Below, one piece after another: positions 13,091 to 64,000 of a stretch of DNA of 64,000 nt; position 1 is the first letter of the stretch, and each line of letters opens with the position of its first letter. The notes beneath the pieces were generated by a model, which did no database searches, was not told where the DNA came from, and was given only the letters and a program-made list of their open reading frames with translations. A program made the translations under genes and the position numbers. The stretch is taken from positions 92,416,765 to 92,480,764 of the forward strand of contig CM037588.1 of the NCBI GenBank assembly GCA_021018995.1. The letters run 5' to 3'. The DNA comes from Chloranthus sessilifolius. Lineage: Eukaryota > Streptophyta > Magnoliopsida > Chloranthales > Chloranthaceae.

Positions 13091-13175
13091 CACAATTGAG
13101 ATCATAATGTACTCTCTACCAAAATTTAATACTATAAGTAAAAGAGATCTTATACATATATTACAAGATTTTGCT

Positions 13176-28851: not shown

Positions 28852-28867
28852 GCTGTAATTCCTTTTT

Positions 28868-36489: not shown

Positions 36490-38265
36490 ATGTCAATAGC
36501 AAAGGATAAAAGACTGAGAGAAGAAGAGAAAGATGAAGGTAGCAGTTCTGATCATTCCCCAATCCGAAAATATATTAAATAGATCGCTGCAAAAGCCATG
36601 CTTAAAAAGAAATCAAAATCTTCTGAGATAGTTATTGGAGAACTACCTGAAGAAATAGTGGCAAATGAGACAGAAGCTAGGATGGCCCTTGAACATAACA
36701 CCCAATCAGATAGAGGCAAAAAGTCGGCATCCAACAAAAGAATACTGGATCAGCCCCATGCATCAATAAAACATCATATTGTGAGGGCTGAGGTTGTAGT
36801 GGATGCCACTTTTTGGGAAAGCGTCGATGTCAGTAAGGCTGCCATCAAATACTTTAAGGATGTTGGGCTTACCTACTTACTAGAGCCTAGGGCAACACCA
36901 GTCTACCCTAGATTGGTGATGCTATTTTACAGAAATATGACCAATAGTAGTAAAGGTCATACCCCAAGGCTCTCTACAATCGTAGATGGGATGAACATCC
37001 AACTGACTAAAGAATTGATTGTTGGGGTCATGCATGTACCCCTAGAAGACCAGAGCTGTTTGCTGATGAGCCGGTGGCCAATCTACTGATGAGCTGGTGG
37101 CCACCCTCTGATTTCTCAGATTTTGAAGAAATGGCAGCAGTACTGCTGGGCAACCCACCCAAGGATAAGTCTTTCATGAGAAAAGACCTGGAAAATAGCA
37201 ACCTCCTACTTCATTTCCTGGATGTGCTTATCTACAAAACCATCCACCATACTTGTCATAAAACAAAGAGGAGGTTTCTCTTTGTCAAAGCCCTATATAT
37301 GATAGCAAACTGAGTGTGGTTTAATGTACCCTCTTACCTCTTGGAGGGAATGGACGCGGTAAGGAAAAAATTGAATTAGTCCAGGTATGAAAAAAATAAG
37401 CTGGAGCTTCCTTTTGGGGGCTTAATTACCAATATTCTGAAGAATTTGGGATATTAGTGGGTACCCATGAGAAAGTCCTTCCAGACTGAGAAGAAGATCT
37501 CACTGCTACAGCTTAAAAAGGACTTTAAATTCAAAGAATAGGAAGAAGATAGCCCTAGTACTGTCCACAAGCAAATTACCCTTCATACCTCCATCAACTG
37601 AGGTAGAACTTGAAGAAGAAAATACAGCATAAGATGATAATGATGCTGCAAATCCTGCTAAATCAGAGATAGTTGAAGGGGAAACCACTCCTACATTTAC
37701 AACAATTGTTGAACTAGAAATAGTAGAGGAGAGACTGCTTGCACAAGAACAGGTTATTTTGTATGATTCAGCATTGGACTTTCAAATAGGACCTGCTTTG
37801 CCTTCTGTACACGAGGAAGAAACAACGCAAACTATTGCTGAAGTAGAGCCGGAGGGCCAAATGACATCCACAGTAGAGGAAGTCCTCATACCTCTGGTTG
37901 AACAATAAATCCCTAAGATGGCTACTTCTAGCCATACTCCTGCACTGAACGAGTCTGTACTTATGCCAGAGATTCCACTACCTATAGAGCAGACTCTTAT
38001 TATTCAAGTCACAGAAGCAGGACCAAGTTTCGAAACTCCACGAGTGCCTTTCACTGAAATGCTAAATGAAGAAGCATCTCCTCTCGTAATGGATGAAACA
38101 GTTCCTACATCATCAGGAACTCAGGCTGAATGGGAAAGGAGACTGGTAGAAGTTGAGAACTGGCAATTGACAAATGCACCACAGCTACTGCTAGTACTAG
38201 AGATGGTAAGAAAAGTGATTGAAGAAATGAATAGGGTGAAAAATAGAGTTTTTGAAGTACTACCT
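36490..38265 (+). pseudogene. Accessory protein of copy C, first part (up to element F)
   Basis: ATG at 36490, 10 bases after CTCTTGCAG. The first frame is highly charged (MSIAKDKRLREEEKDEGSSS). A TAG at 36580-36582 interrupts it once, then it continues in frame through TFWESVDVS, YFKDVGLTYLLEP, VMLFYRNMTNSSKG, LSTIVDGMNIQLT. A short duplication/frameshift at 37060-37090 follows (GATGAGC(C/T)GGTGGCCA repeated), then LLGNPPKDKSFMRKDLE and FLDVLIYKTIHH. After a stop at 37311 come WFNVPSYLLEGM and a long Glu/Thr/Pro-rich tail with VILYDSALDFQIGPALPS, matching copy B (LYDSALDLPIGPAIPP). Same family as copy B and H. Element F interrupts it at 38265. Confidence 0.75.
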
Positions 38266-41018
38266 TGTAACATCCCCAAATTTAGAACCCGCACGCATTG
38301 ACGATTTGGGCCAACTATATTGGGCTGACTAATTGGGCCGAGAGTTGGACCGACTTTGGGCCTTAGTTGGTGTGAAAAATGTGTCTATGTATGCTTCACA
38401 CCGAAGCTAAATGTTATGAGTGATGGTTAACATTGGGTTTAAGTGTATATGCTTAGAACTAAGGCCAAGCTTAGTTTGGTTGAGCTAGTACACATAAGTT
38501 GGTGTGCAAGCTTCACACCAACCCTAAGTCCTTGGATAAGAATTAGAACACACAAGTAGTGTGTGTGTGCTTCACATGGAATCAAACCAAAGGGGATAAA
38601 AGGGATAGGTGTTTCACGCAAGCCTCATTGGATTTGCTTGGTTTTGCAAGAGAGTTGAGAGAGAAAGAGAAAGAGAGAGGGATTTTGAAGAAGAAGAAGG
38701 ATTCATTTGAATCCATGTGCTTTGGGTCGCAAGATCATCGTGAGAATTCCACAAAATGCGTGTGTGAGAGATCACCATCCGATCGTGACGACGTTATAGC
38801 GATTGTGGAGCATGGAGGGAGGCCAAATGGAGTCTTGAAACCCATTTACTTACGAGGTGAGAAGAAGCTCCAATCCTCGAGTGATTCTCTAGATTAGAAG
38901 GCGAGAAATCGACACCCAAATGTATAAAATTTGTAGAATAATATGTATTACCGGTTGTGTAAGAAGTATGAGGGAAAATGAGGAAGAATAAGATTCATTT
39001 GGATGAAAAATATGTTTAAGAAGTTGAAACCCATGAATGTGAGAAATCTGACAAAACCGATCGATCGAAATAAGTGTCCGATCAATTGATTTTGTCAAAA
39101 CAAAAATATGAAGGTTTCTGGAGAAACCAATAGATCGAAATGAAATTTGATCGATCAATTTGTGAAACCGATCGATCGATTTGAACACTGATTGATCGAT
39201 TTGTGAAAACAGTGTGCATGTTAAAGAGTTTCTGAATGAACCGACCAATTGAAATAGAATTTGATCGATCGAAATTTGTCAACAGGCTTCATTTAGGGTC
39301 GATAGGTTTCATGTAAAGTAGACAGGATGTGATGTGAAGATGGGATTGGTTTCTGAGTAAACCAATTGATCGATTTGGTAATCGATCGATCGATTTGGAA
39401 GCCGATCGATCTATTTGTGAACCGATCGATCGACTGTGGGACTGATTATACAAACAGAAATGTGGATGTTTTTCAGAGCAAACCGATCAATCAAAATGTG
39501 TTTCGAACCATCAATTTTGGAAACCGATCGATCGGATTGGGATTTGCTCAATCGATTTGGTCAGATTCTGACAGATTTCTATGTTTGAGAAAAGGGACTT
39601 TGGGAGACTTTAAGACTTCCCATTTTTCGTCACTTGACATATAAGATGAATTTTTGTGGTGTTTTAGGTCGGGATCAAGGATACGTGAGGTGAAGGTTAC
39701 CGTGAGAAAGGAAATATTCATGTGGCTTCAAGTTGAGATAGGGAAAACTCCGTAACATGTGCATTTGATTAGAACTAACATGGATTTTATAATGTGATAG
39801 AAATATGTGTGATTTGTGAAACTTGTTATTTATTTAGCATAAATTTCATTCATAGTTTTAAATATGAAAAGTGTGTGTGTGTGTATGAGCACTCAGATTT
39901 GTGTGTATGTAAAATTACTTATGTGTGTGTGTGTGACATCAGTAAGATGCGAATAAGTGTGTGTGGAAGCTTTGAAACTTTAAACCTAATTATAAATTAT
40001 CATATTTCACGGTGATAAACTGTAAGTTAATTTTACACTTTGATTTAAGGTTTATGAGCGATACCCAGTTGACGCAGTGGGATATCCGTGACCGACGCGA
40101 TGGGACATCCGTGACCTGTACGACAGGATATTCGTACAATTGTACTTCAGGACGGCTAGATATCCATTCATTCCTTACCAATTACGGTAAATTTCCTTCG
40201 ACACAAGTTTTCCTCATACGAAGGGACTTGGGCATCATACGAATGATTCATTGAACGACAATGGTAGGTATTCTCATTGGTATTATATTACGACTCTTGA
40301 TGCTATATATGCTCGAGAGTGTAGTTAAGTGATCAGTTTAAGTTTTCTTTTGTTATGAGAATACATTTTGGAAATTGTATGTTTAGACCTTGATATTAGT
40401 TTTGCTTTAAGTCAAACATCTTTAAATTGTGAATCTTTATTTTAAAAGCATGTTCGAATTATGTCGTAAGATATATGTGTGATGTGATAATATGCATGCT
40501 ATTGATGTTTCCTTACTGAGCTTAGATGTTAGCTCATCCCTCGACTATATCTCATAGGTATAGGTGCAGATTAGGATCAGGCATTGAAGAAAGGCATAGG
40601 ATCTCCCGCTTGGAGAATTCTACTCTAGGTGAGGACTTGGACTAGGCACGTTTTGGGTTTGTATGGTGGATTTTTGAGGTGTTCAGATTTTGGACTTGAT
40701 ATGTACTAGGATTAAACACAGTGTTAAGATTTGTGTTGCAAGTACGTTGGGGAGCCACTGTTTAGATGATATGTATAAAGTAGAAAATTTTAGATCTGCC
40801 TTGTGATATCTAAATTTATTTTCACATATGTATTGATATTTGCTTTGACTTCCATGCTTATACGTGGATATACCAAGTAATTCTGTATTCGGATTGTGAA
40901 GTGTGATCTGACGGTCCGATTTTCCCGAGTTGAAGATGTAAGAAAGAAAAAAAAATAAAAATATTATATATATATAGTACATGATTTTATGAGAATGGGA
41001 AAAAATTGGACTGTCACA
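38266..41018 (+). repeat. 5' LTR of element F
   Basis: TGTAACATCCCCAAATTT...GGACTGTCACA, 2753 bp. Contains a TATA-like GGATAAAAGGGATAG (38594-38608), a GATCGATC array (39055-39560), the tandem GCGG/GATGGGATATCCGTGACC block (40056-40135), and GT-repeat stretches at 39868-39940. Confidence 0.88.
39055..39560. repeat. GATCGATC palindrome array in 5' LTR of F
   Basis: ACCGATCGATCGATTT and variants repeat about 15 times, typically as AACCGATCGATCGA or TTTGATCGATC. The same array is present in the 3' LTR, with more CG-to-CA/TG changes. Confidence 0.82.
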
Positions 41019-41020
41019 GT

Positions 41021-44286: not shown

Positions 44287-46980
44287 TGTAACATCTCCAA
44301 ATTTTGAGCCCGCAAGCGCTGACGATTTAGGCCAACTATATTGGGCTGACTAATTGGGCCGATAGTTGAACAGATTTTAGGCCTTAGTTGGTGTGAAAAT
44401 TGTGTCTATGTACACTTCACACCGAAGCAAATCGTTATGGATGATGGTTAACACGCTTAGCACTAAGGCCAAGCTTAGTTTGGTTGAGTTAGTATTCATA
44501 AGTTGGTGTACAAGCTTCACACCAAGCCTAAGTCCTTGGATAAAACTTAGAACACACAAGTGGTGCATGTGTGCTTCACACATAATCAAACTAAAGGGGA
44601 TAAAAGGGATAGGCATTTCACACAAGCCTCATTGGCTTTGCTTGGTTTTGCAAGAGAGTTTAGAGAGAAAGAGAAAGAGAGGGATTTTGAAGAAGAAGAA
44701 GAAGGATTCGTTTGACTTCGTGTGCTTCGGGTCGCAAGATTGTCATGAGAATTCCATAAAACGCGTGTGTGAGAGATCACCATCCGATCATGATGGCGTT
44801 GTAGTGATTGTGGAGTGTGAAGGGAGGCTGAATGGAGTCTTGAAACCCATTTACTTACGAGGTGAGAAGAAGCCCCGATCCTCGAGTGATTCTCTAGATT
44901 AGAAGGTGAGAAATTGACACCCAAATGTATAAAATTCATAAAATAATATGTATTACCAGTTGTGTGAGAAGTATGGGGGAAAATGAAGAAGAATAAGATA
45001 CATTTGGAAGAAAAATAAGTTTAAGAAGTTGAAACCCATGAATGTGAGAAATCTAACAAAACTAATCGATTGAAATAAGTATCCGATCGATCGATTTTGT
45101 CAGAACAAAAATATAAACATTTCTGGAGAAACCGATCGATCAAAATGAAATTTGATCGATCAATTTGTGAAACCGATCAATCGGTTTGAACACCGATCGA
45201 TCGATTTGTGAAAACAATGTGCGTGTTAAAGAGTTTCTGAAGGAAATGACCAATCAAAATGGAATTTGATCGATCAAAATTTGTAGACAAGCTTCATTTA
45301 GGGTCGACAGGTTTCATGTAAAGTCGACAGGATGTGCTGTGAAGATAGGATTGGTTTATGAGTAAAACGATCGGTCGATTTGAAAATCAATCGATCAATT
45401 TTGAAACCGATCAATCAGTTTGTGAATCGATCGATCGAGTGTGGGACTGATTATACAAATAGAAATGTTGGTATTTTTCGAAGGAAATCGATCGATTGAA
45501 ATGTGTTTCGATTGATCGTTTTCGGAAACCGATTGATCGGATTGGAATTCGCTTGATCAATTTGGTCAGACTCAGGAAGATTTCTATGTTTGAGAAAAGG
45601 GACTTGGGGAGACTTTAAGACTTCCCTTTTTCGTCAATTTTGACATATAAGATGAATTTTTGTGGTGTTCTAGGTCGGGATCAAGGATACATGAGGTGAA
45701 GGTTACCGTGAGAATGGAAATATTCATTTGGCTTCAAGTTGAGGTAGGGAAAACTCTATATAACATGTACATTTGATTAGAACTAGCATGGATTTTATAA
45801 TGTGATAGAAATATATGTGATTTGTGAAACTTGTTATTTATTTAGCATGAATTTCATTCATAGTTTTAAATATGAAAAGTGTGTGTGTAAAATCATTTAT
45901 GTGTGTGTGTGTGACATCAGTAAGATGTCAATAAGTGTGTGTGGAAGCTTTGAAACTTCAAACCTAATTATAAATTATTATATTTCACGGTGATAAACTA
46001 TAAGTTAATTTCGCACTTTGATTTAAGGTTTATAAGCGATACCCAACCGACACGGCGGGATATCTGTGACCGACGTGGTGGGATATCCTTGACTAGTACA
46101 ACAGGACATCCGTACAATTGTGCTTCGGGACAGCTAGATATCCGTTCATTCCTTACCAATTATGATAAATTTCCTTCGGCACAAGCTTCCCTCATACAAA
46201 GGGACTTGGGCATCATACAATGGTTCATTGAACGACGATGGTGGGTATTCTCATCAGTATAATATTGCGGCTCTCGATGCTATATATGCTCGAGAGTGTA
46301 GTTAAGTGATCAATTTAAGTTTTCTTTGTTATGATAATAAGTTTTGGAAATCGTGTGTTTAAACCTTGATATCAGTTTTGCTTGAAGTCAAACATCGTTA
46401 AATTGTGAATCTTTGTTTGAAAAGCATGTTCGAATTATATCATAAGATATGTGTGTGATGTGATAATATACATGCTATTGATATTTCCTTACTGAGCTTA
46501 GATGTTAGCTCATCCCTTGACTATACGTCATAGGTACAGGTGTAGATCAGGATCAGACACTGGAGAAAGGCATAGGACCTCCCGTTTGGGGAATTATACC
46601 CTAGGTGAGGATTTGGATTAGGCATGTTTTGGGTTTGTATGGTGGATTTTTGAGGTCTTCAAATTTTGGACTTGATATGTACTGGGATTAAACACAGTGT
46701 TAAGATTTGTGTTGTAACTACATTGGGGAGCCACTGTTTAGATGATATGTATAAAGTAGAAAATTTTAGATAGTGATATCTAAATTTCATTTTCACGTAT
46801 ATATTGATATCTGCTTTGACTTCCATGCTTATACGTGGATATACCAAGTATTTCTGTATTCGGATTGTGAAAAGTGATCCGACGTACCGATTTTCTCGAG
46901 TTTAAGATGTAAGAAAGAAAATATATATATATATATAGTACAGGATTTAATGAGAACAGGAAAAAAATCAGGCTGTCACA
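44287..46980 (+). repeat. 3' LTR of element F
   Basis: TGTAACATCTCCAAATTTT...AGGCTGTCACA, 2694 bp, the partner of 38266-41018. It has the same order of blocks, including the GATCGATC array (45060-45560) and the tandem GGCGGGATATC block (46035-46115). A (TA)n run lies just before its end (46921-46937). Confidence 0.88.
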
Positions 46981-49622: not shown

Positions 49623-51045
49623 TGATCAGTCACATAATATATCATTTTATTACCCTTAACTTAGTGATGCTAGACCTTAGTTTATTACTAATGAGATGTT
49701 ATGTGCAGATATTTAGATTAATGAGCAGATTAGAGCTAAAGTACTAATCTTTATCAAAATGAACTAAAAAAATAGCAAGAATTACGATCGTACGAAGAAA
49801 CGATCCACTCGAATGAAGGACCAGTCAATGAGCAAGAAAAAGGAATGCTGAACGAACATAAGTCTCGAATGAGTGAAAAAGAAAAAAGAAAAGACAAATC
49901 GGGATTCACGAACGCACGAAAAAGTTACGATTGAAAGACCAAAAGTAAGATCTCAAACGTTCGACAGAGCAGAGATAATATAGAAACAAGAATAATCGTG
50001 CATACAATTGTACGAAATAAAGATCAGGCTGCTGATCACGTGCAGTCTATACCGCCATGTATAAAATTAGAAGATCTCTTGGATTAGAAGTTTGGCAACT
50101 TACGGATCAGAGAAGATTGGCAAAAGAACTTAGAAGAGGTCTGCGGCTAAAATAAAGGAGAAAATTCCAGCATGCATCTACCATTCAAAACAAGGAAGAA
50201 TTAGGATTAGAAGTAGAGTTATATTAGGAATTTTTTTTGTTTAGAAGTTTTCTTTTATTAGAGATAGAATAATATAAACTGACCTCTTATGATCTATAAA
50301 TAAGAAGGCTCGGCATAGGAGTAGAGTTATCGAAGAAACTCTCAGCATTAATTGATGACTGAGGTTGGGTTTTCTTTCAATCAAAAGTAGAGTAGACTAG
50401 TTTAGATATCCAAGGTTTCTCGAGAGCAATTGACGCCTGTGATCAGGAGCTGGAAGATTAGCGTAGAGTATCTGTAATTTCTCAGAAGTAATTGACGCCT
50501 GCAACTGAGGGATGAAAGATTTTTTTATTACTTTCTAGTTTAGATTTATTTTCCTGTATTTTACTATTTTGTAAATATCTAAAAGTTTTTATTTGAATTG
50601 ACGACTCAGATTGAAAATTTGCAGATTAGTGTAACAATTTTACTTTTCCATCTTCAATTTTCTTGAGTTTGATTGATGCCCAAATTTTAGGAAGATTGTT
50701 GATTAGCTTAAATCTGTGTTAAGGAATTCTAGCTTTTGATTAACTCCCAAATCCTAGAGGACTGAGATACAGTGTAACGGTATTTTATTTTGTAAATATC
50801 CGAGATCTGAAGGATTGTGATTGAACCCCATAATCTGGAAGGAGGAGGATTTAGATTTATTTTCGTAATTAATTTAAACAACCCGTTCTTTATTTATATT
50901 TTTCCAATAGTTTAGGATCTTAAAAGATAAACACAAATTTTTAAACAAACAAAATTACTCTAGAATAAACAGTTTCCTCGTGGGAACAATCCTATACTAG
51001 TGTTGTAATTTCCGTTGTGCGCTTGTAATAGGTTATGACTTAGTA
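49623..51045 (+). repeat. 3' LTR of copy C
   Basis: TGATCAGTCACATAATATATC to GTGCGCTTGTAATAGG and then about 51040, where similarity with LTR-A and LTR-B ends about 30 bp short of the expected end. TATA-like TCTATAAATAAGAAGG at 50291-50306. Palindrome cluster CGATCGTACGAA, CACGAACGCACGAA, AACGTTCGAC, CAATTGTACG at 49775-50010. Confidence 0.82.
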
Positions 51046-52420: not shown

Positions 52421-54536
52421 TGTGATAGCCCGATTTTTGGCATCCCATGCTTACACGTACACTTGGCACATCTACAAACTAATACACAAAGTTATCTCAA
52501 CAAAGAAGATAGATTCACAACACGCTTCAAAAGAAAGCACATTTCTAAACGTAAACATGATCAAAGTAACGGTTCTAAACCTCATGCTAAATGCATGAAT
52601 GGAAGAACCGAGACGAACCATCAGTGATAGACAACTATCACCAACGAATGGTTGACAAAATAACATCCAATATAATTATCTTACGTAACCAACATGAATC
52701 AAAAGTGGCTGGACATACCAAGCAAACAAAAATACTCTTCTGACAGCTCACACAAACACAGTCTACTTAGGAAAGAACTCCTCTAGAAGGGGCTTAATCT
52801 CCTCTTTAGGTTCATATTCCTGATCGCTTTCAATATCTAGATCCTTCTCTAAATCCTCACCTATGACATATAGTCAAAAGGGTGAGCTTACATCCAAGCT
52901 CAATAGGGGCAAACGTTAGTCGCATTTAAATCTCATATCACAAGCATAAAGTCACATAACTGAGTTTCATAGGCACATTTCACATTTATCTTATTTGAAT
53001 TTCATATGAAAAACTTAATCACACACATGCTTGAATCACAACTTCGTTTTAAAACACTTGTCATAACTTAAAGCATTAACTTGAATACTTTTCTAAGCAA
53101 ATATAGCTTAGAAATTGCATATAATACTGATGGGAATCCAAACCATCGTCGTTCAATAAGCTATTCACAAATACATATTACCGTTGGCCGATAAGAAAAT
53201 TTGAACGGATATCCCGCCGTACTAGAGCACAATGAACAGATATCCCGTCGTACTGGAGCACAATGGATTTGTTTTACTAAACCTTAAATGAATGTGTATT
53301 TTCTAACTTATAGTTCCACATCGTGTAAAGTGACGCTTTATAATATTTTCGGAAAACTAGGATTCTTACACATTTTCAAAATTCTCACGTACACGATTCA
53401 TATCACATTTGCTTCTTTCACATCACATATTCTATTCAAAACTTGTTTAAATTTAAAGAATTTTGCATGCTTGTTTCACACATATCACATCATATAATTG
53501 TACTCAAAACTCATTTGAAAACGTAGAAGATCACATGCTTATTTCACAAAACTATTTTAGGCCTATCACATCACATTACTTAACTTACACATAGTATATT
53601 CAAATTAAATGATCGTAAGTTTCCCCTACATCGAGTCATGCCTAGCACACATCACACATGGCTCTCTTGGGAGTCCACACACATGCTCAATACGATAATC
53701 CTACATACAAAATGTCCACAAACCCCTTAAGAAAGCTTAAGAAGAACCTAAGATATACATTTCTAACGAATTCACATCAAAAGAGCTAAAATAAATTTGA
53801 CTATGTTTCTCACGCGAGTGAGCTCTGAAGCTTGGGCGCGCGAGGTCTGAAACTCGGGCGACTGACTGGATTTTTGTGCGTTGGAGCCAGTTACGCGAGG
53901 CCTTGCACGAGCAAACCTCAAAGTCACTTAAGCCTCGCATGAGCGAGTCTCTGAGCCTCATAGGCACTTATGGTTCACTGAAGGCTTCTCGCGCGAGCGA
54001 GCTCTAGGGCTCGAGCACGTGAGAACTAGTGTTCTTTCATATCTAAGTTTTTTCTCAACTCGATCTTCCTAGTATGTCTTTCACACTTCTTACACTTTAT
54101 ATTAAAACACTTTATTATAAAAATTCACACATGAGAGTGTTGATTTCTCACCTTTAACTCAACGGCTATCTCGTAGATTGAATCGTCTTCTTTCCTTGAA
54201 AGTAAATGGGTTTCAAAACCCTTTTCGTCTTCTCTAAGCTGCACGATCACAACAAAGCCAACGTAATCGTGTGGCAATCCTTCACGCACGAGTTTGCGTA
54301 AGTTTCACTATTATCTAGTGGATCATAACCCAAGGATTCATGAAATTCCTTTCTCCTCAAACCCTTCTTCCTTTCTTTCTTTCAAAACCCTAAGTTAGTA
54401 ACCCAAGGAATGGGTCTCACACGTGGGTATCACTCCTTATCCTAGCAATTGACTTTGCCTCCTTGCAAAGCACATACACATGACTTGTGTGTGTTACACA
54501 AAGCCAATTATCTCCTTTGGTATGAAACACATGTAC
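52421..54536 (-). mobile_element. LTR G, chromovirus-type, 5'-truncated solo LTR
   Basis: Its minus-strand end is ...AAATCGGGCTATCACA (52421), the typical chromovirus LTR end. The block GTGACCTACATCC-like at 52862-52915 and the palindromic GATATCCCGCCG repeats (53205-53265) match LTRs of F and H in inverse orientation. No PBS lies left of 52421, so it is a solo LTR. Its 5' end is lost or continues right of element H, which begins at 54537. A palindrome array (GCGCGAGCGAGCTC) lies at 53815-54030. Confidence 0.72.
53815..54030. repeat. GCGCGAG / CTCGCGC array in LTR G
   Basis: CTCACGCGAGTGAGCTC, CGCGCGAGGTC, TCTCGCGCGAGCGAGCTC and TCGAGCACGTGAG repeat eight to nine times. Confidence 0.7.
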
Positions 54537-56960
54537 TGTAACGTCCCGTAAATTTTGTATTTAAATAGTTCACCTCGGGATGCGGACCAACTGGTTAAGT
54601 GTTTGACCGGGTCAACATTGAATCAATTGACTTAGTTGAACATGGGGAGATGACAAAGGTAAGTGGAACAAGAGTGATTAGTAGGATGTGTGAGTATATA
54701 CACTGAGTTAGTTATATATGCTTTACACCAAATTTTAATGGTATAGGTTATAAGGGATAAATGAGAGGAGTTATTTCATTTTTAATGTAAAGAAGAGTTA
54801 AGAGAGAGAGAGAGTAAATGAGAGGAGAATTGTTGTGAAGTAAATGAAGAAGTGTGTTGAATACAATTCTTTGATCTTGGCTCGCAAAGTCTAACGGATC
54901 AAGCTCGGGATCGAGGAGAGATTTTAGTTGTGGGTTTGAGAAACCCTAGTAAGCTAAGGCTTGGGACCAAAGGATCCAACCATTTGAAGGTGAGCTGAAT
55001 TTTCTTAAGAAATTCCTTAAATTAGTTTGATTTATCAGCCATATGTTTAAATATAAATATAGATATAAAGATATGAGATTGGTGAAGGCTTGGAAGGGCT
55101 TTGGATGAGTTCAAGAAGTGATGAACTCGATCCAAAGCTGAGAATAAGCAAATTCGATCAAACGATTTTCCAAATTGTTTGAACGAATTTGGCCTGAGGA
55201 GAAGAATTGAATAAGAGAAAGGTTTCTGAGTAAATCGATCGAACGATTTGGAATTCGTTCGTTCGATTTTGGAAACCGTTTGATCGAAATAAAAATCGAT
55301 CGAACGGTTTTGCTCAGAAGAGAAAAAGGTAAAAGGAGAATTCGTTCGAACGAAATAAAAATCATTCGAATGATATGAAATTCGTTCGAACGAATTAGAA
55401 ACTGTTCGATTGATTTGGTTAAATTTAGGCTTTGGAGACTATTTTAGCTTGTAAATAAATTATAGTTGAACCTAGGCTTATAAGCCCAATGGTTGAACAC
55501 TGTAGTGATGTTCTTTATGTGTCGGTTATACCTAGGTTAAGCCGGACCATTGAGCTACTCGTAGAGGGATCAGGTTGGAGAGTTCAAAAATTCAGGATGC
55601 ATTGAAGTAGGGGAATATCTAACTAGTACACTGTATTACAAGCACATATGTAGTGATAGCTTGAGATGCATGTTTCTTTAAATATTGTTTTTGAGTAATA
55701 GTAAATGCAAAGAGTAACATAAATGGAAATGGTGTATGTGTCTACACAAATAAAAGAGGAAATTTGTTAAGTAAGAGATAAATCATCCCAGGGATGTAAG
55801 AACACACAGGCATCGTAGAGATGCAATAGACAATGTGACATCCCAGGGATGTGTGGTGGATGTAAAGATCCACTTTATGAGATAAACAGTAATTATGAAT
55901 GCACGGGCTGGGTGTTACTATCTATTAGCACAAATTCACGGTGAATAACTATATTTATTGCACAATTTGGTTTTAAGGTTCAGAGAATACCCAACTGACG
56001 CGGCGGGATAATCGTGACTGACTCGGCAGGATATCCGTGACCGGTACGGCGGCTAATCTGTACACCAGCAGACATCCCAGGGATGTATTGTAGTAATATG
56101 CCCGTCGCCTAAGAGAAAGGGATGAGACATTTCCAAGAAAAATAGTCTGATTAGACGACGATGGAGGGTATTCCATCGGGGCTCGATGCTATATTGCTTG
56201 AGGATTATTTAAGTTAAGATTTAAGTCAGGATCTCAGCCTGGTTGCAACTAAGAGAAATAGTAGTCATTGAAAGAAATACATGAGTAGAGTAACAAACGT
56301 AGTCAAATTATTTTATCACATCTTAAAATTACTTTTTTTGAAATGACATATCTATGAGTGCATGCTTTATTCTTGTCATCATATATATGTTTGTAAGATG
56401 GATATACTTGCTGTGATATTGCCCTATTGAGCTAGGATGTAGGTCACCCCTTTGACTATATGTCACAGGTGGCGGTTTAGGAATTGATGATAATGTAGGA
56501 GTTGCTACCGGCGAGGGTGATCCCGACGATTCAGAGTACTTTCCTAGGGAGGAGTCTGAGCCTCCTCCGGAGAGATTCTTCTAGAAGATTCGCTATGTAT
56601 TTTGATAGTGTTTTATGAAAAGAAAGAGAATTACGGCTTGGTACGTCCAGCCTTATTTTTGAAAGAGTAAACGTAACTATAATATTCTTTTGCCGAACCA
56701 TTGGGAGTGACCGTAGCTACGGCATTGATGGTTCGGGTTGGTTCTTTTGTTCATGTGGAGTCATGAAATCAGAACTATCTTTTGGATAAGTATTTTTGGA
56801 TGAACATATAGTAGAAATGGAGATTTATTTTGCATTAGTTTCTTGTGCTTAATATGATGAATGAGGTGTACCAAGTGTTTCGCACGTACATTATGGGGCA
56901 CGGCCTCGAGGGCTGTGTTGATGGCACGGGTTTCGGGGTGTCGAAATCTGGGCTGTCACA
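54537..56960 (+). repeat. 5' LTR of H
   Basis: TGTAACGTCCCGTAAATTT...GGGCTGTCACA, 2424 bp. TATA-like GGTTATAAGGGATAAATG at 54746-54763. A CGTTCGAACG-type array lies at 55148-55418. CATCCCAGGGATG (palindrome) occurs at 55784-55796, 55839-55851 and 56073-56085. The GGCGGGATA(A/T)(T)C block is at 55985-56060. It is inserted at the truncated end of LTR G; left flank TGTAC. Confidence 0.85.
55148..55418. repeat. CGATCGAACG / CGTTCGAACGAA array in LTR of H
   Basis: Units such as AATCGATCGAACGATTTGG, TTCGTTCGTTCGATTT and AATTCGTTCGAACGAA follow at intervals of 15-30 bp. The same motif is repeated at 62394-62826 before the accessory ORF of this element. Confidence 0.82.
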
Positions 56961-56962
56961 GT

Positions 56963-56975
56963 TGGTATCAAAGCC
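56963..56975 (+). other. Primer binding site of H
   Basis: TGGTATCAAAGCC, two bases after the LTR end; initiator-methionine type, same as in F. Confidence 0.85.
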
Positions 56976-57055
56976 ATTTTCTTTAAAATTTCTGACAAAG
57001 TCTTAGACTTTTGTTGGAGTGAAGGGATCTTCTGCTAACAAAACTTTGGTTTCAT

Positions 57056-58379
57056 ATGCAGAGCGTGATGTCTTCTGGAAGAAGGGGTCGACCAAGAGGT
57101 ACCCATAATAGAAACCAGAGCGGTGAAGAGAGATTTCAGGCAGGGTCTAGTAGTAGAGACCAGGAAAATTCTCGAGAAGGAGAACAGAGGAGTGAAACGA
57201 CTGACCGGATCGCATTGGCTATGGAGACTATGGCCGCTGCGATGGCTCAGCAGACGCAGCAGACTGCGATACTGGCTGAGCAGACGACACTATTGGCGGC
57301 GAATAACATCAATAACGCCAATAGTCATCAACCGCCACCACCACCTCCTCCAGCATTGTTGCCATCGTCGTTTGTAGATTTTAGGAGATTGAGACCTCCT
57401 AGCTTCTATGGGCAGATGGATCTGTTGGAAGCAGAGAAATGGCTGAACCAAATAGAGAAGCTTCTAGACAGACTATGAAGTACAGAAAGTGAGAAGGTAG
57501 GATGGGCTTCTTTCCAGTTGGAGGGAGATGTCGATCTGTGGTGGAAGTCTGTGTTGAGAAAGAGGGAAGTAGAGGACCCGCATCGCCTATGGACTTGGGC
57601 GGACTTTGTAAGAGAGTTCAATAGGGAATATTTCCCTAAACAGGTGCGGGTACATATGAGAAGGGAGTTTGCAAACCTTCAGCAAAGGAGTATGTCCGTA
57701 CGAGAGTACGGTGTAGAGTTTACGCGATTGTCCCAGTTTGCACCGGAGTTAGTATCCACAGAGGTTATGAAAGCGGCCAAATTTGAGGAGGGCCTTCGAC
57801 CGAACATCCGTGAAAGGGTGTCAATCTTTGAACTAGAACACTATGCGGATGTGATGGGAAAAGCCATAGTAGCTGAGAGGGATATATATGGGGTGTACAA
57901 GAGAAGAGATCAACACGACGGGACAGGAACAGCTCAGGGGGGAGCGAGTGAGTATAGCTCGGGGAATAAAAAGCCGAGATTTACCACGCCGACTCCACTC
58001 CCTAGACAGGGCACGTATACAAATTTCTCTAGGCCACCTATGTCCATGTTGGCAAGACCAATCCGCTATGGGAACCCTACCGCCACTACCGGAGTATCTG
58101 CTAGTCAAGGCGTCTCTCGAGCTGCCTCCTCCACTCCAAGGGAGACATGTGCCAAATGCGGCAAGCCTCACACAATGGTTGATTGTAGAAGGGGAATGCA
58201 AGGGTGTTACCGATGTGGAAAGCTAGGCCACATAATAAAGGATTGCCTTGAGTTGAGCGAAGGGAGAATAGCTTCTGCTTCTGCATCACGAACCGTACAG
58301 GCTAAGAGACCGATTGTACAAGGGAGAACTTATGCAGTCACGACAGAGGACGCTCAGAACTCCAATGATATCATTCAAG
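57056..58379 (+). pseudogene. Gag of chromovirus H
   Basis: Start ATG at 57056 (a second Met at 57068). N-terminal Gly/Arg/Ser-rich segment, a Gln/Ala helix (AAAMAQQTQQTAILAEQTTL), a proline run, then the capsid core (MDLLEAEKWLNQIEKLL; VGWASFQLEGDVDLWWK; PKQVRVHMRREFANLQQ; EFTRLSQFAPELV). Near the C terminus come a short CAKCGKPHTMVDC and a CYRCGKLGHIIKDC knuckle (CX2CX4HX4C), about 58148-58250. A single in-frame TGA (57476-57478, probably CGA before deamination) interrupts the core; otherwise the frame is open to 58379 and, unspliced, to a stop at 58436-58438. It packages RNA and forms the particle. Confidence 0.9.
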
Positions 58380-58559
58380 GTGAGTTCTACTTGAGTTTAA
58401 TTACCATGCTATCCAATATAACATTTACAATGAATTAGTAGAAAAACATTGCATTTTTCTTGGTTAGATTTAGTGTCATTTAAGAGTTTTGTTGGTCACT
58501 TGAATATTATGTTTAAGTAAGTAATACGAATGAAGTGATAAGATGTGTGTACACTATAG
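58380..58559 (+). other. Intron at the gag/protease junction of H
   Basis: CAAG|GTGAGT at 58379/58380 and CACTATAG|G at 58559/58560 enclose 180 bp that is T-rich and without coding similarity. Splicing joins the end of the Gag frame to the protease frame in phase within one Gly codon, while reading through reaches a stop at 58436. The intron thus could set a Gag to Gag-Pol ratio. Gene-internal introns between gag-pro and pol are known in Ogre (Tat lineage) elements; I do not know of one at this place in chromoviruses. Confidence 0.8.
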
Positions 58560-59180
58560 GTACCCTATTTGTGTATGGGAAGAAGAGTCGTGGAGCATAC
58601 GAGGCTAGAGCGTTGATAGACCCAGGGTCTACTCATTCGTTTGTTACTCCTTGATTTGTAAGAAGGATGAGGATCAAGCCAGAGACATTAGATTTCGTCT
58701 TGGCTGTGATGGTTCCAACCGGACCGATAGTTGATGCAGACTTAGTCTGCAAGTCAGTAACCGTAGCTATTAAAGACGGAGAGGTTTTTGAGTTGTCAGC
58801 AAATCTGATTCTGTTAGACATGCAAGGATTTGATGTAATCCTTGGCATGGACTGGTTGTCAAAATACTGTGCAACGGTTGACTGCAAAAGTAAGATTGTC
58901 ATCTTTAGGCCGAATACCAGGAGATCATTTCGATTTGTTGGAGTAAGAACGAAATTCCTACCACTTGTGTCCGCCATCAAGGCTGAACGCCTAATCAGAA
59001 ATGGATGCAGTGGGTACTTGGCCCTTTTGATGGATGACAAGGAAAGAAAGAATGTTATTACGGAAATCACAATGGTGTGCAGTTTGAAGACGTTTTCCCA
59101 GAGGAATTACCAGGCTTACCTCCAAATCGAGAAGTGGAGTTTGCTATCGACTTAGCACCTGGAACGCGTTTCTAAAAGCA
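58560..59180 (+). pseudogene. Protease region of chromovirus H
   Basis: After the intron the frame opens with TLFVYGKKSRGAYEARALID and PGSTHSFVTP, where DPGSTHSF is the active-site block of this protease family in chromoviruses (D-x-G). A TGA (58652-58654, again consistent with CGA) interrupts it just behind. The rest contains VDADLVCKSVTVAIKDGEVF and DVILGMDWLSKYCATVDCK, the LGMDWL block that ends the protease fold. A one-base frameshift near 59077 and a stop at 59172 follow, in the RT lead-in ([16 protein letters not shown]). It cleaves the polyprotein when intact. Confidence 0.85.
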
Positions 59181-60050
59181 GATAGAATGGCTCCAATTGA
59201 AGGAACAACTGCAAGAACTTTTAGATAAGGGGTTTGTCAAACCAAGTGTATCCCCTTGGGGTGCACCGATCTTGTTTGTTAAGAAGAAGGACGGGTCAAT
59301 GAGGTTATGCATTGACTACCGTCAGTTGAACAAACTCACTATAAAGAATAAGTATCCGTTGCCAAGAATAGATGATTTGTTTGACTAGTTACAGGGAGCC
59401 AAGTATTTTTCAAAGATCGACTTGAGGTCGGGATATCATCAGCTCAGGGTCAAGGCAGAAGACATTCAAAAGACTGCTTTTAGGACGAGATACGGACACT
59501 ACGAGTTCTTAGTGATGCTGTTTGGGTTGATGAATGCGTCGGCGTCCTTCATGGATTTAATGAATCGGGTGTTTAAACCACACCTGGACTCTTGCGTCGT
59601 TGTATTTGTCAATGATATCCTCATCTACTCCAAGTCAAGGAAAGAACATGAGGAGCATTTGAGATCCGCTCTACAAACACTGCATGAACACCAATTATAC
59701 GCTAAACTCAGTAAATGCGATTTTTGGTTAGAAGAAGTTACCTTTTTGGGACATGTCTCAAAAGATGGTGTCACGGTGGATCCTACTAAGATTGAGGCAG
59801 TAGTGCAGTGGGAGCAACCAAAGACAGTCACCGAAGTGCGCAGTTTCCTTGGTTTAGCTGGGTATTATAGACGCTTTGTGGAAGGATTTTCCAAGCTATC
59901 GGGCCCACTGACCAAACTCACAAGGAAAGATGTACGATTTGAGTGGACCGATGCATGCGAAGCAAGCTTTCAAGAACTGAAGAAGCGACTGACCTCAGCC
60001 CCGATACTTGCAATCCCTTCAGGCAGTGGAGGTTTTGCAGTTTATAGTGA
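59181..60050 (+). pseudogene. Reverse transcriptase of chromovirus H, active site FVND
   Basis: Blocks: [52 protein letters not shown], a TAG at 59389-59391 (CAG expected), then [57 protein letters not shown] and [13 protein letters not shown]. The YVDD box reads FVND: the first catalytic Asp is Asn (AAT at 59611-59613) and the preceding Tyr is Phe. The FGL block has Leu (VMLFGL) where Pro is usual. RT converts element RNA to cDNA; this copy would be inactive even without its stops. Confidence 0.92.
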
Positions 60051-60440
60051 TTTAATAGTTTGGGCTGTGTGCTAAACCAGTATAAAAAGGTGATTGCTTA
60101 TGGATCGAGACAGTTGAAGGACCATGAGAAGAATTACCCCACTCATGACCTCGAGCTTGTAGCAGTCATTTTCGCATTGAAGATCTGGCGACACTATTTG
60201 TATGGGGAGACCTTTGAGATTTTCACTGACCATAAAAGCCTCCGATATTTATTTACACAGAAAGAGCTAAACATGAGGCAGAGAAGGTGGATGGAATTTC
60301 TCAAAGATTATGACTGCTCTATCCAATATCACCCAGGCAAGGCTAATGTCGTCACGGATGCTTTGAGTCGAAAGGGTTCAGCTCAATTGGCTAACCTGAT
60401 ACTGGGAATGCATAGGTGGAAATTGTTTGAAGATTTGTCA
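60051..60440 (+). pseudogene. RNase H of chromovirus H
   Basis: The strand with the first acidic residue is FAVYSD at the end of the RT frame; a frameshift near 60050 follows. The domain continues in the next frame: [40 protein letters not shown] (Glu), [19 protein letters not shown] (Asp), [20 protein letters not shown] and [11 protein letters not shown] (distal Asp). All four carboxylates are present though in two frames. It removes the RNA template during cDNA synthesis. Confidence 0.9.
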
Positions 60441-60639
60441 ATGTATGATACGATGATAGAAGTACAAGCTTCATGTACTCTGTTGGCCAATATTTCAGTG
60501 CGGCCAATGATCTTCGAACACGTACACGAGTTACAGATGAAAGATGCCGAGTTGGTTAAGATTCGAAAGGAAGTGATGGAGGGGACTCAACCGGATTTCT
60601 CTATAAGGGAGGATGGTTCCTTATTATTCAGGGGACGCC

Positions 60640-61936
60640 TCTGTATTCCGATTGATGCCGGTCTACGCCAGACTATTTTGGATAGGCACACAAGTCCAAG
60701 TACGCCATTCATCCGGGTAGTACCAAAATGTATCAAGATCTGCGTAAGAACTACTGGTGGAGAGGTCTCAAGCACGACGTAGCAGAGTATGTGTCAAAGT
60801 GTTTGACGTGTCAACAAGTAAAAGTCGATCATCGACACCCTGCTGGGTTATTACAGCCTCTACCTATACCGGAATGGAAGTGGGAATCTATCTCCATGGA
60901 TTTCATTGTGGGATTGCCACGGACAGTGAAGAGGTATAACGCCATCTGGGTTGTTGTAGATAGATTAACAAAATCGGCTCATTTCTTGCCCTACAACACC
61001 ATGTATACGTCGGGCAAACTAGTGGAACTCTATATGAAAGAGATAGTACGCCTACATGGTATTCCAAGCAGTATTGTATCTGATCGTGACCCGATGTATA
61101 CTTCAAAGTTTTGGCAAAAATTTCAAGAAGGTATGGGTACTCGGTTAGATTTCAGTTCAGCGTTCCATCCACAAACTGATGGGCAGACGGAACGAGTAAA
61201 CCAAGTGATCGAAGATATGCTCAGGGCGTGCATGCTTGAATTACAGGGTTCATGGGATCAGCATCTTCCCTTGATCGAGTTTGCTTATAATAATAGTTTT
61301 CAAGCAAGCATCGGAATGGCGCCGTACGAAGCTCTTTATGATAGGCGATGTCGATCGCCCATCAACTGGGAAGAGACCGGAGAAAAATTTGTGCTTGGTC
61401 CGGATATTCTCGAAGGTAATGCTATGTTTGTCTGGATGATGAGGGAACGACTGCGATCAGCACAGAGCCGACAAAAGAGTTATGCCGATATCAAGAGAAC
61501 GAGCCTGGACTTCGCCGTGGGTGATCACGTATTTGTGAAAGTATCTCCTATGAGGGGTGTGATGCGGTTCGGAAGAAAAGGGAAGCTTAGTCCTCGTTAT
61601 ATCGGACCCTTTGAAGTTTTGGGTCGAGTCGGAGACGTAGCCTATCGCATCGGATTGCCTCCGTTGTTTGATAGGGTGCACAATGTCTTTCATATCTCTA
61701 TGCTCCGCAAGTACGTAAAGGACCCCACGCACATTTTAGGTGGTCAACCAATTGAGTTACATGAGGATATGACAATGGTTGAAGACGCTACTCAAATCTT
61801 GGACCAAAAGGAGCGAACTCTACTTACTAAGGTCATTCCATTAGTGCTAGTCAAGTGGGGCAACCACCCTGTTGAAGAAGCAACTTGGGAGAGAGAGGCT
61901 GAAATTCGGAACTTGTATCCCCATTTATTTGAGTAA
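60640..61936 (+). pseudogene. Integrase with C-terminal chromodomain of chromovirus H
   Basis: The zinc-binding N terminus is damaged: a frameshift near 60697 destroys the first His, and the Cys pair remains in CLTCQQVK. From 60728 the frame is open for 402 residues: MDFIVGLPRT (first catalytic Asp), SDRDPMYTSKFWQKF (second Asp, about 61081), HPQTDGQTERVNQ (Glu, 61188 region; D-D-35-E), AYNNSFQASIGMAPYEALY, then GPFEVLGRVGDVAYRIGLP and NVFHISMLRKYVKDP. The last block, LVLVKWGNHPVEEATWERE and LYPHLFE, is the chromodomain end typical of Tekay/Del. The chromodomain would steer integration towards chromatin marks. TAA/TAG follows at 61934. Confidence 0.93.
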
Positions 61937-62393
61937 TGGAGATTGTAAATGATCTGTGCTAGGTGTGAAGAAAATGTATGAAACGTTGGATTATTTTGTT
62001 TAATTTTGTTTTTATGATCCGGGTATAAAACTGGTTTAAGCGGTGTTCGACTTACGCGTTAATCTTTACGATTTTTAAATGTAGCATGGGAAACTATCAT
62101 TTTGAGTTCCTCTCTCAAATTATGAATATTATGTGTACAGCTAGCCGGCATTTTGTCAAGGTCTACATGTGCAGTTCGGATTAGCTGTGGAAAATGAGCG
62201 ATTTCCAGATTGGTCGATTGGTAACAAATGGGACTGATCTGTGAGTAATAAGAACGTGATCATTCACGCACTGATGGCTTACTTGTTGGGGTAAATGGTT
62301 GTTAGTCCATAGTGGGGCATGAAGGAATTGCCTCATTTTAAATTAATGATTTGAACAATCTGAGGGAACAACCTTAGTTTCAAAATTTGGCAT
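61937..62393 (+). other. Spacer between pol and the accessory promoter of H
   Basis: No ORF and no LTR start or end is present, and no break in texture marks an insertion. The region contains GTATAAAACTGG (62024-62035), a weak TATA-like string. Confidence 0.5.
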
Positions 62394-62826
62394 TTCGTTT
62401 GATCGAAATTAAAAATTCGATCGAACGAATTTCTATGGGTCAAAGAAACAGGCATAGCCGGAAATCGTTCGAACGATTTTCCAAATCGTTCGAATGAAAT
62501 GTAACTACCAGTGGGTACTGATGAGTTCTCAGAGCATCGTTCGAACGATTTCGCAAAACCGTTCGAACGAAATACTTTCGCCAGTGAGAGGGAAAATGGC
62601 CTACAATTTTCATCTATGAAACCGTTCGATCAATTTACAAACCGATCGAATGAAAATTTTTGGAGGCATTTAAACGTGGGGAATTCGTTCGATCGAAATC
62701 AAATTTGTTCGAACGAATTTTGGGCTGGCATTTAATACTTGAAAACCGATCGAACGAATTTCAAATCGTTCGATCGATTTTGACCCTTATATATAGCTGC
62801 ATTCGATTTTCTTTTCTTTCGTTCGA
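62394..62826. repeat. CGTTCGAACG / CGATCGAACG array upstream of the accessory ORF of H
   Basis: ATCGTTCGAACGATT, ACCGTTCGAACGAAAT, GGAATTCGTTCGATCG and similar units, about 12 in 400 bp. They are the same sequence class as in the 5' LTR of this element (55148-55418) and differ from the arrays of all other elements in the window. Confidence 0.85.
62787..62796 (+). promoter_or_regulatory. TATA box for the accessory ORF of H
   Basis: TTATATATAG, next to the last palindrome unit, 264 bp before the likely start codon, followed by AT-rich leader. The place matches the TATA boxes that follow arrays in the Tat-like LTRs at 9326 and 51551. Confidence 0.6.
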
Positions 62827-63059: not shown

Positions 63060-64000
63060 ATGCCACCAAAAACTCACCAAGCTACGGCGAGTGCGGCACG
63101 AAGAAACCCACTTCGGGTTCTTCTTCGCAACAACCGCTGAAGAAACCACCTACGGGTTCTTCATCGGCACCGGCCGTACAAGCACCACCACCACCACCTA
63201 TGCATGAATGACCAAATGAATGGTGGTCGGATAAGGATTTCGAACCCGAGTGGATAATCGATCCTAAAATTTTTGCCAAGCGTGATGAAACGCATTGGGC
63301 ACTCAATTACATTTCCACTGCTGGTTTAATGGGTATCCTAAGACCGTGCAACGAGAGTTACTACCCTCGAATCGTTCGACTCTTTTACCAGAATATGGAA
63401 ATCATTAAGGACCCAACAATTTTAAAGACAAAGATTGATAATCGACCGTATACGTTTACTTTTGATGACGTGGCCGATGCGTTGGACTGCTTCCACACGT
63501 ATAACCATGAGGATATAGCATTAGCGGAGCCTTTTCCAAAGGCATTAGACTATCAGTATGTAGCCGATCAAATGACCCATGGCCGAATAGGTTCGGGTCA
63601 TTCTATCAAACGAGTTGATTTGCCCCGTGACCTCTGGATGCTTGATTCCATCATCCACTGTAATTTGTACCCCTTACGCCATCGGGCCGAAAGAGTAGGT
63701 GAGGTTCAAATGACACTCTTTTCAGCTTTTAATGGGCGATGGTTCAATGCCCCCAAAATGGTTTTGGAGGGAATGAAGTATGCCCGGAAGAAGATGTTAG
63801 CCAATGTAAAGAAATCGATTGACGACATGCCATATGCGAGACTGATTTCACTTATGGTAGAAGACTACGCGGGGGATGATACCTCCACCCTCTCCCCAAA
63901 TGAGTTTAAACTGACTGGCAATATTCAACAATTTATCATGGTTGATTGGAACCGGACATATGTCAAACTAGTTAAAAAGCCGATAGCCGAGGTACCACCC
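63060..64000 (+). pseudogene. Accessory protein of H (plant 'putative transposon protein'-type domain), runs off the window
   Basis: ATG at 63060 starts MPPKTHQATASAARRNP; a one-base frameshift at about 63090-63100 and a TGA at 63209-63211 separate it from the main frame, which is then open from 63212 to the window end (262 codons). It reads EWWSDKDFEPEWIID, NYISTAGLMGILRPC, YYPRIVRLFYQNME, TKIDNRPYTFTFDDVADAL, then SIKRVDLPRDLWMLDSIIHC and RWFNAPKMVLEGMKYARKKM. These align block by block with copy B (VRLFYKNI, TTIDKFPIAIT) and copy C (WFNVPSYLLEGM). Family as in copies B and C; no catalytic residues are recognised. Being intact for 262 codons suggests recent constraint. Confidence 0.75.

What the first reader, a model, noticed from the sequence alone, without database searches (positions are those of the whole stretch)
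54537..62826. Same CpG-centred palindrome array in the LTR and before an internal accessory ORF of one element
In chromovirus H the LTR array (55148-55418) and the internal array (62394-62826) use one motif class, CGTTCGAACG/CGATCGAACG. The same pairing is seen in Athila-like copy A (17690-17930 with 12930-13090, AATCGTAA/TTACGATT) and copy B (32280-32470 with 29220-29400), and less clearly in copy C (49775-50010 with 35925-36075, ACGAACG/CGTACG). Between elements the motif changes completely. This suggests one DNA-binding factor, possibly the accessory protein itself, acting on both the LTR promoter and the internal promoter, with motif and protein co-evolving. A known parallel in logic is VANC of the plant VANDAL transposons, which binds short element-specific motifs and counteracts silencing. 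Binding is inference.
Basis: partly seen in the sequence, partly recalled or inferred. Interest (0 to 1): 0.95.

Follow-up and report, generated by a model that had tools for sequence, protein, structure and literature searches.

The report
Retrotransposon's LTR and accessory-gene promoter share palindromes
A plant retrotransposon carries the same kind of short palindromic DNA sites in its main promoter region and in front of an extra gene of unknown function, which suggests that one regulator controls both, perhaps the extra gene's own protein; this is inferred from sequence and has not been tested.

Summary
New here: neighbouring sites lie 20-22 bp apart, two helical turns, as six pairs internally and as one pair and two runs of four in the LTR. 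The internal array ends just before a TATA-like sequence and an accessory ORF that weakly matches PF20167 and is related to the accessory ORFs of Athila-like B and C. Spacer sequence differs between the arrays, though five sites in a row match in order, so part of them may share descent. For A the pairing is modest, for B and C weak, and their motif is largely shared, so "motif changes completely" fails there. It holds among Tekay-like LTRs H, G and M; K is weak. Best reading: one DNA-binding factor, specific to the element, acts on both promoters. Whether it is the accessory protein, and what it does, is untested. Foamy-virus Tas is closer in layout than VANC. No relatives outside the window could be reached, so co-variation across copies remains open.

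The parts
54537..56960 (+). 5' LTR of element H (Tekay-like chromovirus), TGTAACG...TGTCACA; PBS-like TGGTATCAAAGCC follows at about 56963
   Evidence: read from sequence; the tRNA-iMet PBS type is recalled
55148..55418 (.). LTR array of H: 10 primary sites, a pair (55155, 55176) and two runs of four (55236, 55256, 55277, 55297; 55343, 55363, 55383, 55403)
   Evidence: CpG o/e 2.87 against 0.72 in the rest of the LTR
57023..61936 (+). gag and pol of H in several frames, chromodomain-like C-terminus; no site within 1 mismatch
   Evidence: Pfam Retrotrans_gag 8e-19, Integrase_H2C2, SH3_Tf2-1 above cut-off; rve and Chromo (4.8e-5) below it; the reverse transcriptase frames were read by eye, not scanned
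62394..62826 (.). internal array of H: 12 primary sites in 6 pairs (62396/62418, 62466/62487, 62538/62560, 62623/62643, 62686/62706, 62747/62767), then weaker overlapping sites at 62816 and 62820
62788..62796 (+). TATATATAG, about 11 bp after the core of the last internal site; proposed TATA box of the accessory ORF
   Evidence: read from sequence; inference
63060..64000 (+). accessory ORF of H, beginning broken, runs off the window; open from 63212
   Evidence: PF20167 Transposase_32 E 3.3e-5, 24.3 bits, below gathering score 45; BLASTP to B's ORF E 6e-10, 26% over 196
38266..41018 (+). 5' LTR of G with array about 39058-39534 of CGATCGATCG sites, many 20-21 bp apart
44287..46980 (+). 3' LTR of G with array about 45084-45539; no <=1-mismatch site in G's internal 41019-44286
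17690..17930 (.). LTR array of Athila-like A (minus strand), ATCGTA half-sites, for example AAATCGTAAATACGATTT at 17694
12930..13110 (.). internal array of A, ATCGTA half-sites, before reading frames unrelated to B's and C's ORF
32280..32470 (.). LTR array of B: weak, ATCGTA once exactly
29220..29400 (.). internal array of B, ATCGTA 3 and TCGTAA 4, upstream of its accessory ORF
27958..28890 (-). accessory ORF of B: basic N-terminal piece (28606-28890), one stop, then 27958-28602
49775..50020 (.). LTR array of C, mixed CGAACG/TACG/ATCGTA
35925..36080 (.). internal array of C, ACGAACGAACG and TACGTACG
36583..37310 (+). accessory ORF of C in two frame-shifted pieces, 57% and 52% identical to B's
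53800..54060 (.). weak array in K, a Tekay-like LTR on the minus strand (about 52422-54537): CTCGCGCGAG-like sites
33789..34110 (.). array in M, a Tekay-like LTR without visible internal part (about 32563-35655): TCGCCTGGGCGA-like sites, two pairs 42 bp apart

Best explanation
In H the two arrays are binding sites for one sequence-specific, probably oligomeric DNA-binding factor. The unit is an 18-bp palindrome, roughly AAWTCGWTCGAWCGAWTT, repeated two helical turns apart so that neighbouring sites face the same side of the DNA. The internal array is the upstream control region of a separate promoter (TATA-like sequence at 62788) that drives the accessory ORF; the LTR array controls or shields the main transcript. 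Most likely the factor is the accessory protein (PF20167-like), which would regulate its own promoter and the LTR together, as foamy-virus Tas does, or keep both free of silencing, as VANC does. Shown: the sites, their spacing, the absence of sites between, the ORF after the TATA-like sequence. Inferred: binding, the internal promoter, the identity of the factor, and its effect.
For: 7 and 12 sites within 1 mismatch in the arrays, 0 between. k-mers trained on one H array find the other as the best place elsewhere in the window (z 10.8 and 14.4). Adjacent spacings of 20-22 bp: 7 of 9 (LTR) and 6 of 11 (internal), random mean 0.88 and 0.94, 0 of 20,000 placements as high. With sites masked, the two arrays are no more alike than shuffles (143 of 200 score as high; 36 of 200 in reverse orientation), so sites are kept where spacers are not. 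Of 42 departures from the eight fixed core positions over the H and G sites, 38 are C-to-T or G-to-A. Among the LTR arrays of H, G, K and M no two different elements share CpG 6-mers beyond shuffles by more than z 0.3, which argues against one conserved host factor. In the aligned part of the A/B/C LTRs the array stretch falls to 0.24-0.56 identity, against mostly 0.67-0.92 in the adjoining stretches. Accessory ORFs of H, B and C are related.
Against: No DNA-binding domain was recognised; PF20167 is below its gathering score; no relatives in proteins or solved structures. Part of the two H arrays may share descent: five consecutive sites match in order at 49 of 50 bases, reached by 8 of 5000 order shuffles (uncorrected for five run lengths; 486-674 of 5000 if pairs are kept whole). 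A keeps a B-like motif beside frames unrelated to B's ORF. H's accessory ORF start is broken and its end lies outside the window. G, K and M show LTR arrays but no visible accessory ORF or internal array; K's array is weak. In G, CpGs inside the array decayed like those outside (18 of 40 kept against 29 of 68, p 0.84; 3 and 8 other changes left out), and other positions diverged slightly more inside (44 of 411 against 156 of 2037, p 0.048), so nothing shows protection or constraint there. Only one element gives strong own-LTR/own-internal pairing.
Confidence: 0.47

Rival explanations
1. A host transcription factor binds both arrays; the element has gathered its sites in both promoters.
For: Explains sites in copies without a visible accessory ORF (G, K, M). 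A, B and partly C share ATCGTA.
Against: H, G and M, and weakly K, use different motifs in LTRs of one general type, which would need different host factors. No host motif library was searched.
Confidence: 0.25
2. The arrays are tandem repeats grown by slippage, or one array is partly a duplicate of the other, with no shared function.
For: Five consecutive sites of the LTR array match the first five of the internal array in order, 49 of 50 bases, 8 of 5000 order shuffles. Tandem repeats between pol and the 3' LTR are common in Retand elements (PMC11963269, passages). TRF finds 20-, 21- and 40-bp periods in the H LTR array and a 45-bp one in M.
Against: With pairs kept whole the order match is not significant (674 and 486 of 5000). 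TRF reports nothing in H's internal array. Spacers are unlike (the one between the matching pairs 132 of 1000 shuffles), so sites would still have been kept while spacers changed.
Confidence: 0.13
3. The paired palindromes work as RNA or cruciform hairpins (packaging, dimerisation, small-RNA source), not as protein sites on duplex DNA.
For: Both arrays fold far better than shuffles (z -6.3 and -8.7). Pair members in H mirror each other: W positions agree as inverted repeats at 19 of 22 against 12.8 expected, p 0.0095. In H alone losses are 10 C-to-T and 3 G-to-A, leaning to changes that keep a G-U pair.
Against: Any two palindromes of one motif can pair, so the fold z-scores follow from the sites. 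G and H's LTR have runs of three or four sites, not only pairs. G shows no mirror excess on the core (p 0.77; 0.10 and 0.07 with flanks of 3 and 5), and over H and G together losses are 21 C-to-T and 17 G-to-A.
Confidence: 0.12
4. The internal array and accessory ORF belong to a different element inserted after H's pol, and the shared motif is coincidence.
For: A PF20167-like accessory ORF is reported in Athila (PMC11728184, passages), and H's 3' LTR is outside the window.
Against: By eye no LTR or element end was seen between 61937 and 62394, and the motif match is far beyond shuffles.
Confidence: 0.03

Closest known systems
Foamy virus Tas (Bel-1) with its internal promoter and LTR
   Same: A transactivator that acts on, and in bovine foamy virus binds, both the LTR promoter and the internal promoter (starts of abstracts of PMC8670036 and PMC4929722, search listing).
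   Different: Different virus group; no homology tested; binding, activity and internal promoter are only inferred here. That the Tas gene lies behind the internal promoter, and that its sites in the two promoters are less alike, is recalled.
VANC proteins of Arabidopsis VANDAL transposons
   Same: Element-encoded protein, short motifs in arrays in non-coding parts, motif differing between related families (passages of PMC5735166).
   Different: The VANC21 motif YAGTATTAY is neither palindromic nor CpG-centred; VANDALs are DNA transposons; no binding or methylation data here, and no VANC homology was tested.
Additional ORFs of plant Ty3/gypsy elements (Athila ORF1 / Transposase_32, Retand TRP28, Grande gene23)
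   Same: Accessory ORF between pol and the 3' LTR. A sunflower Athila aORF partly matches PF20167 and has a predicted nuclear signal (PMC11728184, passages); TRP28 is predicted to bind DNA (PMC11963269, passages); gene23 is transcribed from a promoter upstream of it (PMC7264820, first part and one section).
   Different: H is a chromovirus with a sense-strand ORF; TRP28 and gene23 ORFs are antisense. In what I saw, none describes the same palindrome array in LTR and ORF promoter.

Membership tests
Ty3/gypsy chromovirus, Tekay type (H) | Ty3/gypsy-type gag and integrase | tested here: met
   Retrotrans_gag, Integrase_H2C2 and SH3_Tf2-1 above their cut-offs
Ty3/gypsy chromovirus, Tekay type (H) | chromodomain after integrase | tested here: inconclusive
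   Chromo E 4.8e-5, 23.6 bits, just below the cut-off of 25.1
Ty3/gypsy chromovirus, Tekay type (H) | place in the Tekay clade by reverse transcriptase phylogeny | not tested
   no tree was made; the clade name rests on recalled LTR and PBS features
PF20167 Transposase_32 accessory protein | profile match at the gathering score | tested here: not met
   H 24.3 bits against 45, E 3.3e-5; B and C pieces no match up to E 0.1
Accessory ORF family of H, B and C | sequence homology among the three | tested here: met
   A's frames no match at E 0.05
VANC-type anti-silencing system | element-encoded protein binds the motif | not testable with these tools
   needs EMSA, DAP-seq or ChIP
VANC-type anti-silencing system | motif arrays in non-coding parts, differing between related families | tested here: inconclusive
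   met among H, G and M, weakly K; not met among A, B and C
VANC-type anti-silencing system | loss of methylation at targets | tested here: inconclusive
   in G, CpG decay equal inside and outside the array; no methylation data
Foamy-virus-like dual-promoter circuit | internal promoter before the accessory gene | tested here: inconclusive
   TATA-like sequence after the array; no transcript data
Foamy-virus-like dual-promoter circuit | accessory protein binds both promoters | not testable with these tools
   only the shared sites are shown

The most novel reading that the evidence does not exclude
Plant Ty3/gypsy elements carry a lock-and-key control circuit: the long-unexplained accessory protein is a sequence-specific DNA-binding protein whose palindromes, two helical turns apart, sit in both the LTR and its own promoter. 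Families escape one another's control by changing the palindrome (CGTTCGAACG, CGATCGATCG, TCGCCTGGGCGA, perhaps CTCGCGCGAG), and partial copies without the gene keep LTR sites and so depend on it in trans.
Probability: 0.35. Interest if true: 0.9.

Novelty: new variant of a known kind. Interest (0 to 1): 0.72.

Why it matters
Extra ORFs were found in 3372 Ty3/gypsy and 582 Ty1/copia elements of one survey, and whether they have any function is left open (PMC6317226, passages; also PMC7264820 and PMC11728184). A shared site in the LTR and the ORF's promoter gives a concrete, cheap test of function: does the protein bind that site. If it does, it would explain how such elements control transcription or resist silencing, and might give sequence-specific tools of the kind the VANC authors propose for editing epigenomes (PMC5735166).

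Tried and rejected
Rejected: complete motif change between all elements (A, B and partly C share ATCGTA). Not supported: protection of array CpGs in G. Not settled: that the internal array of H is independent of the LTR array; masked spacers are unlike, but five sites match in order. RNA-fold z-scores were not taken as evidence for RNA because palindromes produce them.

Led nowhere: protein searches with H's ORF (145 candidates, 0 at E <= 0.001) and with the H/B/C alignment (1546 candidates, 0); viral contigs by exact 18-mer (0) and by H integrase (1 pattern match, 0 confirmed); solved structures (0). Papers: 10 searches showed no description of this pairing in the listings (capped at 8-20 rows) or passages seen; preprints and most subscription journals are not held.

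Rows dropped before counts: for spacing and departures I kept 10 and 12 primary H sites and left out sites at <=2 mismatches that overlap them by a 4-bp shift (55232, 55260, 55293; 62414, 62690, 62771), the isolated 55128, and 62816/62820; likewise for G (38776 and the shifted registers in both LTRs). Splitting H's LTR runs of four into pairs, and the G pairs, are my choice. The site set is limited to 2 mismatches, which bounds the departures. The site model was chosen after seeing the arrays; searches are the less biased tests. In one search A's best 10-mers are spread over LTR positions 18-619, not confined to the array, so A's excess there is not array-specific.
Full report
What the window is. 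It reads as plant DNA with nested Ty3/gypsy elements. H (from 54537, plus strand) has a 2.4-kb LTR, gag, pol with a chromodomain-like end (Pfam Chromo E 4.8e-5, just below its cut-off), then an array and an accessory ORF that runs off the window. Its 3' LTR is not in the window. Athila-like A and B are on the minus strand and C on the plus strand; G, with two LTRs 87% identical, appears nested in C. Two further Tekay-like LTRs were noticed: K (minus, about 52422-54537) and M (plus, about 32563-35655, inside B's LTR). The names Tekay and Athila rest on domains, LTR style and recalled PBS types; no phylogeny was made and the species is unknown.

The observation in H. Allowing one mismatch to CGWTCGAWCG there are 7 sites in the LTR array and 12 in the internal array, against shuffle means of 0.29 and 0.47 (100 shuffles, maxima 3 and 4), and none in the 5433 bp between. 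k-mers learned from either array pick out the other as the best place elsewhere in the 64 kb (z 10.8 and 14.4). A search of 200-bp LTR windows against internal windows puts the best pair on the arrays, score 630.1 against a maximum of 214.5 for 12 shuffles. The extended site reads about AAWTCGWTCGAWCGAWTT, an 18-bp palindrome.

New geometry. The 12 primary internal sites form six pairs 20-22 bp apart; the 10 primary LTR sites form one pair and two runs of four at 20-21 bp. Adjacent spacings of 20-22 bp are 6 of 11 and 7 of 9, against 0.94 and 0.88 expected; none of 20,000 random placements reached this. G's arrays show 7 of 12 and 8 of 12. In the whole window 29 pairs of sites (up to two mismatches) lie 20-22 bp apart, 28 of them in H or G. 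Twenty to 22 bp is two turns of the helix, so neighbouring sites face one side, as expected for a cooperative or oligomeric binder; that is inference from spacing. Within H, taken as 11 pairs, the two W positions mirror each other at 19 of 22 positions against 12.8 by permutation, p 0.0095. G shows no such excess on its core (p 0.77; 0.10 and 0.07 with flanks).

Copy or not. With the sites masked, LTR and internal arrays are no more alike than shuffles (143 of 200 score at least as high). But without masking, LTR sites 5 to 9 match internal sites 1 to 5 in order at 49 of 50 bases, a C-to-T variant included. 8 of 5000 shuffles of site order do as well at that run length; for lengths 2, 3, 4 and 6 it was 3537, 315, 146 and 129 of 5000, and with pairs kept whole 674 and 486 of 5000. 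So part of the two arrays may share descent, with sites kept while spacers changed. This check came late; because of it I lowered my main reading from 0.50 to 0.47 and raised the repeat or duplicate rival from 0.10 to 0.13. Departures from the fixed core are 38 of 42 C-to-T or G-to-A over H and G (H LTR 8 of 9, H internal 5 of 5, G 12 of 14 and 13 of 14), which fits methyl-CpG decay.

The other elements. A: ATCGTA occurs 5 times in the LTR array, 4 in the internal array and 3 in 6252 bp of the rest. The window search found the claimed arrays as the top pair in A, B and C as well, above the 12 shuffles barely in A (132.5 against 129.2), clearly in C (184.7 against 147.2), not in B (87.6 against 139.8); in G, the fifth element run, the top pair was noise (87.8 against 149.9). 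With CpG content controlled, own LTR against own internal array scores z 3.4 (A), 2.4 (B), 2.3 (C), with 2, 8 and 8 of 300 shuffles as high. But A's LTR array is closest to B's internal array (z 6.2) and C's LTR array to B's internal array (3.6). In a seeded count the best 10-mer exceeds the maximum of 10 shuffles in M (10 against 6), G (17 against 10; 18 against 7), H (15 against 7), A (8 against 6, spread beyond the array) and narrowly K (7 against 6), not in B (5 against 6) or C (6 against 7). K has one perfect 10-bp CpG palindrome, p 0.10. So the Athila-like copies share one broad motif class and the claim of element-specific motifs fails among them. Among H, G, K and M no two different elements share more CpG 6-mers than shuffles by over z 0.3, although G and H arrays partly align and differ mainly at the W position: all 52 half-sites in G's two LTRs carry A, against 13 of 44 in H.

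Change over time. LTRs of A, B and C were aligned from their start to just past the TATA-like sequence. The array stretch falls to 0.24-0.56 identity; the adjoining stretches are mostly at 0.67-0.92, with A against B dropping again to about 0.51 further on. For the internal arrays the pattern is weak: B against C is 0.56-0.69 in the array and 0.74-0.86 before it, while A differs even more from both beyond its array.

The accessory ORF. H's ORF matches PF20167 at E 3.3e-5 but 24.3 bits, below the curated 45. It is related to B's (E 6e-10, 26% over 196), and B's to C's (57% over 95). A's three short overlapping frames have no match to them at E 0.05. B's N-terminal piece is rich in lysine and arginine. 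A sunflower Athila accessory ORF matching PF20167 has a predicted nuclear signal (PMC11728184, passages).

How it may work. The best reading is a factor that binds the spaced palindromes at both the LTR and a separate promoter of the accessory ORF, which has a TATA-like sequence just after the array. The site differs between related LTRs, which favours an element-encoded factor, and the accessory protein is the product beside the array whose role is unassigned. In logic this is closest to foamy-virus Tas, which acts on the LTR and the internal promoter (starts of abstracts of PMC8670036 and PMC4929722, listing), and second to VANC, which binds family-specific motif arrays and removes methylation (PMC5735166, passages). 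It is not filed as a member of either. Against lasting protection from methylation, CpGs in G's array decayed like those outside (18 of 40 kept against 29 of 68, p 0.84).

Prior art. In what I saw, Retand's TRP28 is predicted to bind DNA and a regulatory role is proposed (PMC11963269, passages); Grande gene23 is transcribed from a promoter upstream of it (PMC7264820); accessory ORFs are described as of unknown function (PMC6317226, PMC11728184, passages). Ten searches of open papers, seen as capped listings, showed no report of the same palindrome array in LTR and accessory promoter.

Limits. Everything rests on one window: one element with strong pairing, one modest, two weak. No outside relatives were found and the source genome could not be searched.

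Noticed in passing
53800-54060: K, a Tekay-like LTR on the minus strand next to H, has CTCGCGCGAG-like sites (7 at up to 2 mismatches, of 18 in the window); as an array it is weak.
   Followed up: partly
33789-34110: M, a Tekay-like LTR inside B's LTR, has TCGCCTGGGCGA-like sites: 4 of the window's 5 at up to 2 mismatches, in two pairs 42 bp apart, four helical turns.
   Followed up: partly
12026-14248: A has gag and then short frames with the array between them and no room for pol, and those frames are unrelated to B's and C's accessory ORF; it may depend on another copy.
   Followed up: partly
38266-46980: G has two 2.7-kb LTRs (87% identical) around 3.3 kb in which I saw only a gag-like zinc-knuckle piece: probably a deletion derivative with LTR arrays but no internal array.
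   Followed up: partly
40071, 46046, 55994, 53202: G, H and K LTRs carry short tandem repeats of related sequence (23- and 31-bp periods, CGGCGGGATATCCGT-like), a second repeated LTR feature.
   Followed up: no
34682-34850: A 43-44 bp tandem repeat of about 3.7 copies in M's LTR.
   Followed up: no
54987-57062: H's LTR has a splice-donor-like AAG/GTGAGC before the array, and an acceptor-like TATGCAG lies before gag, so the LTR array might lie in a leader intron.
   Followed up: no
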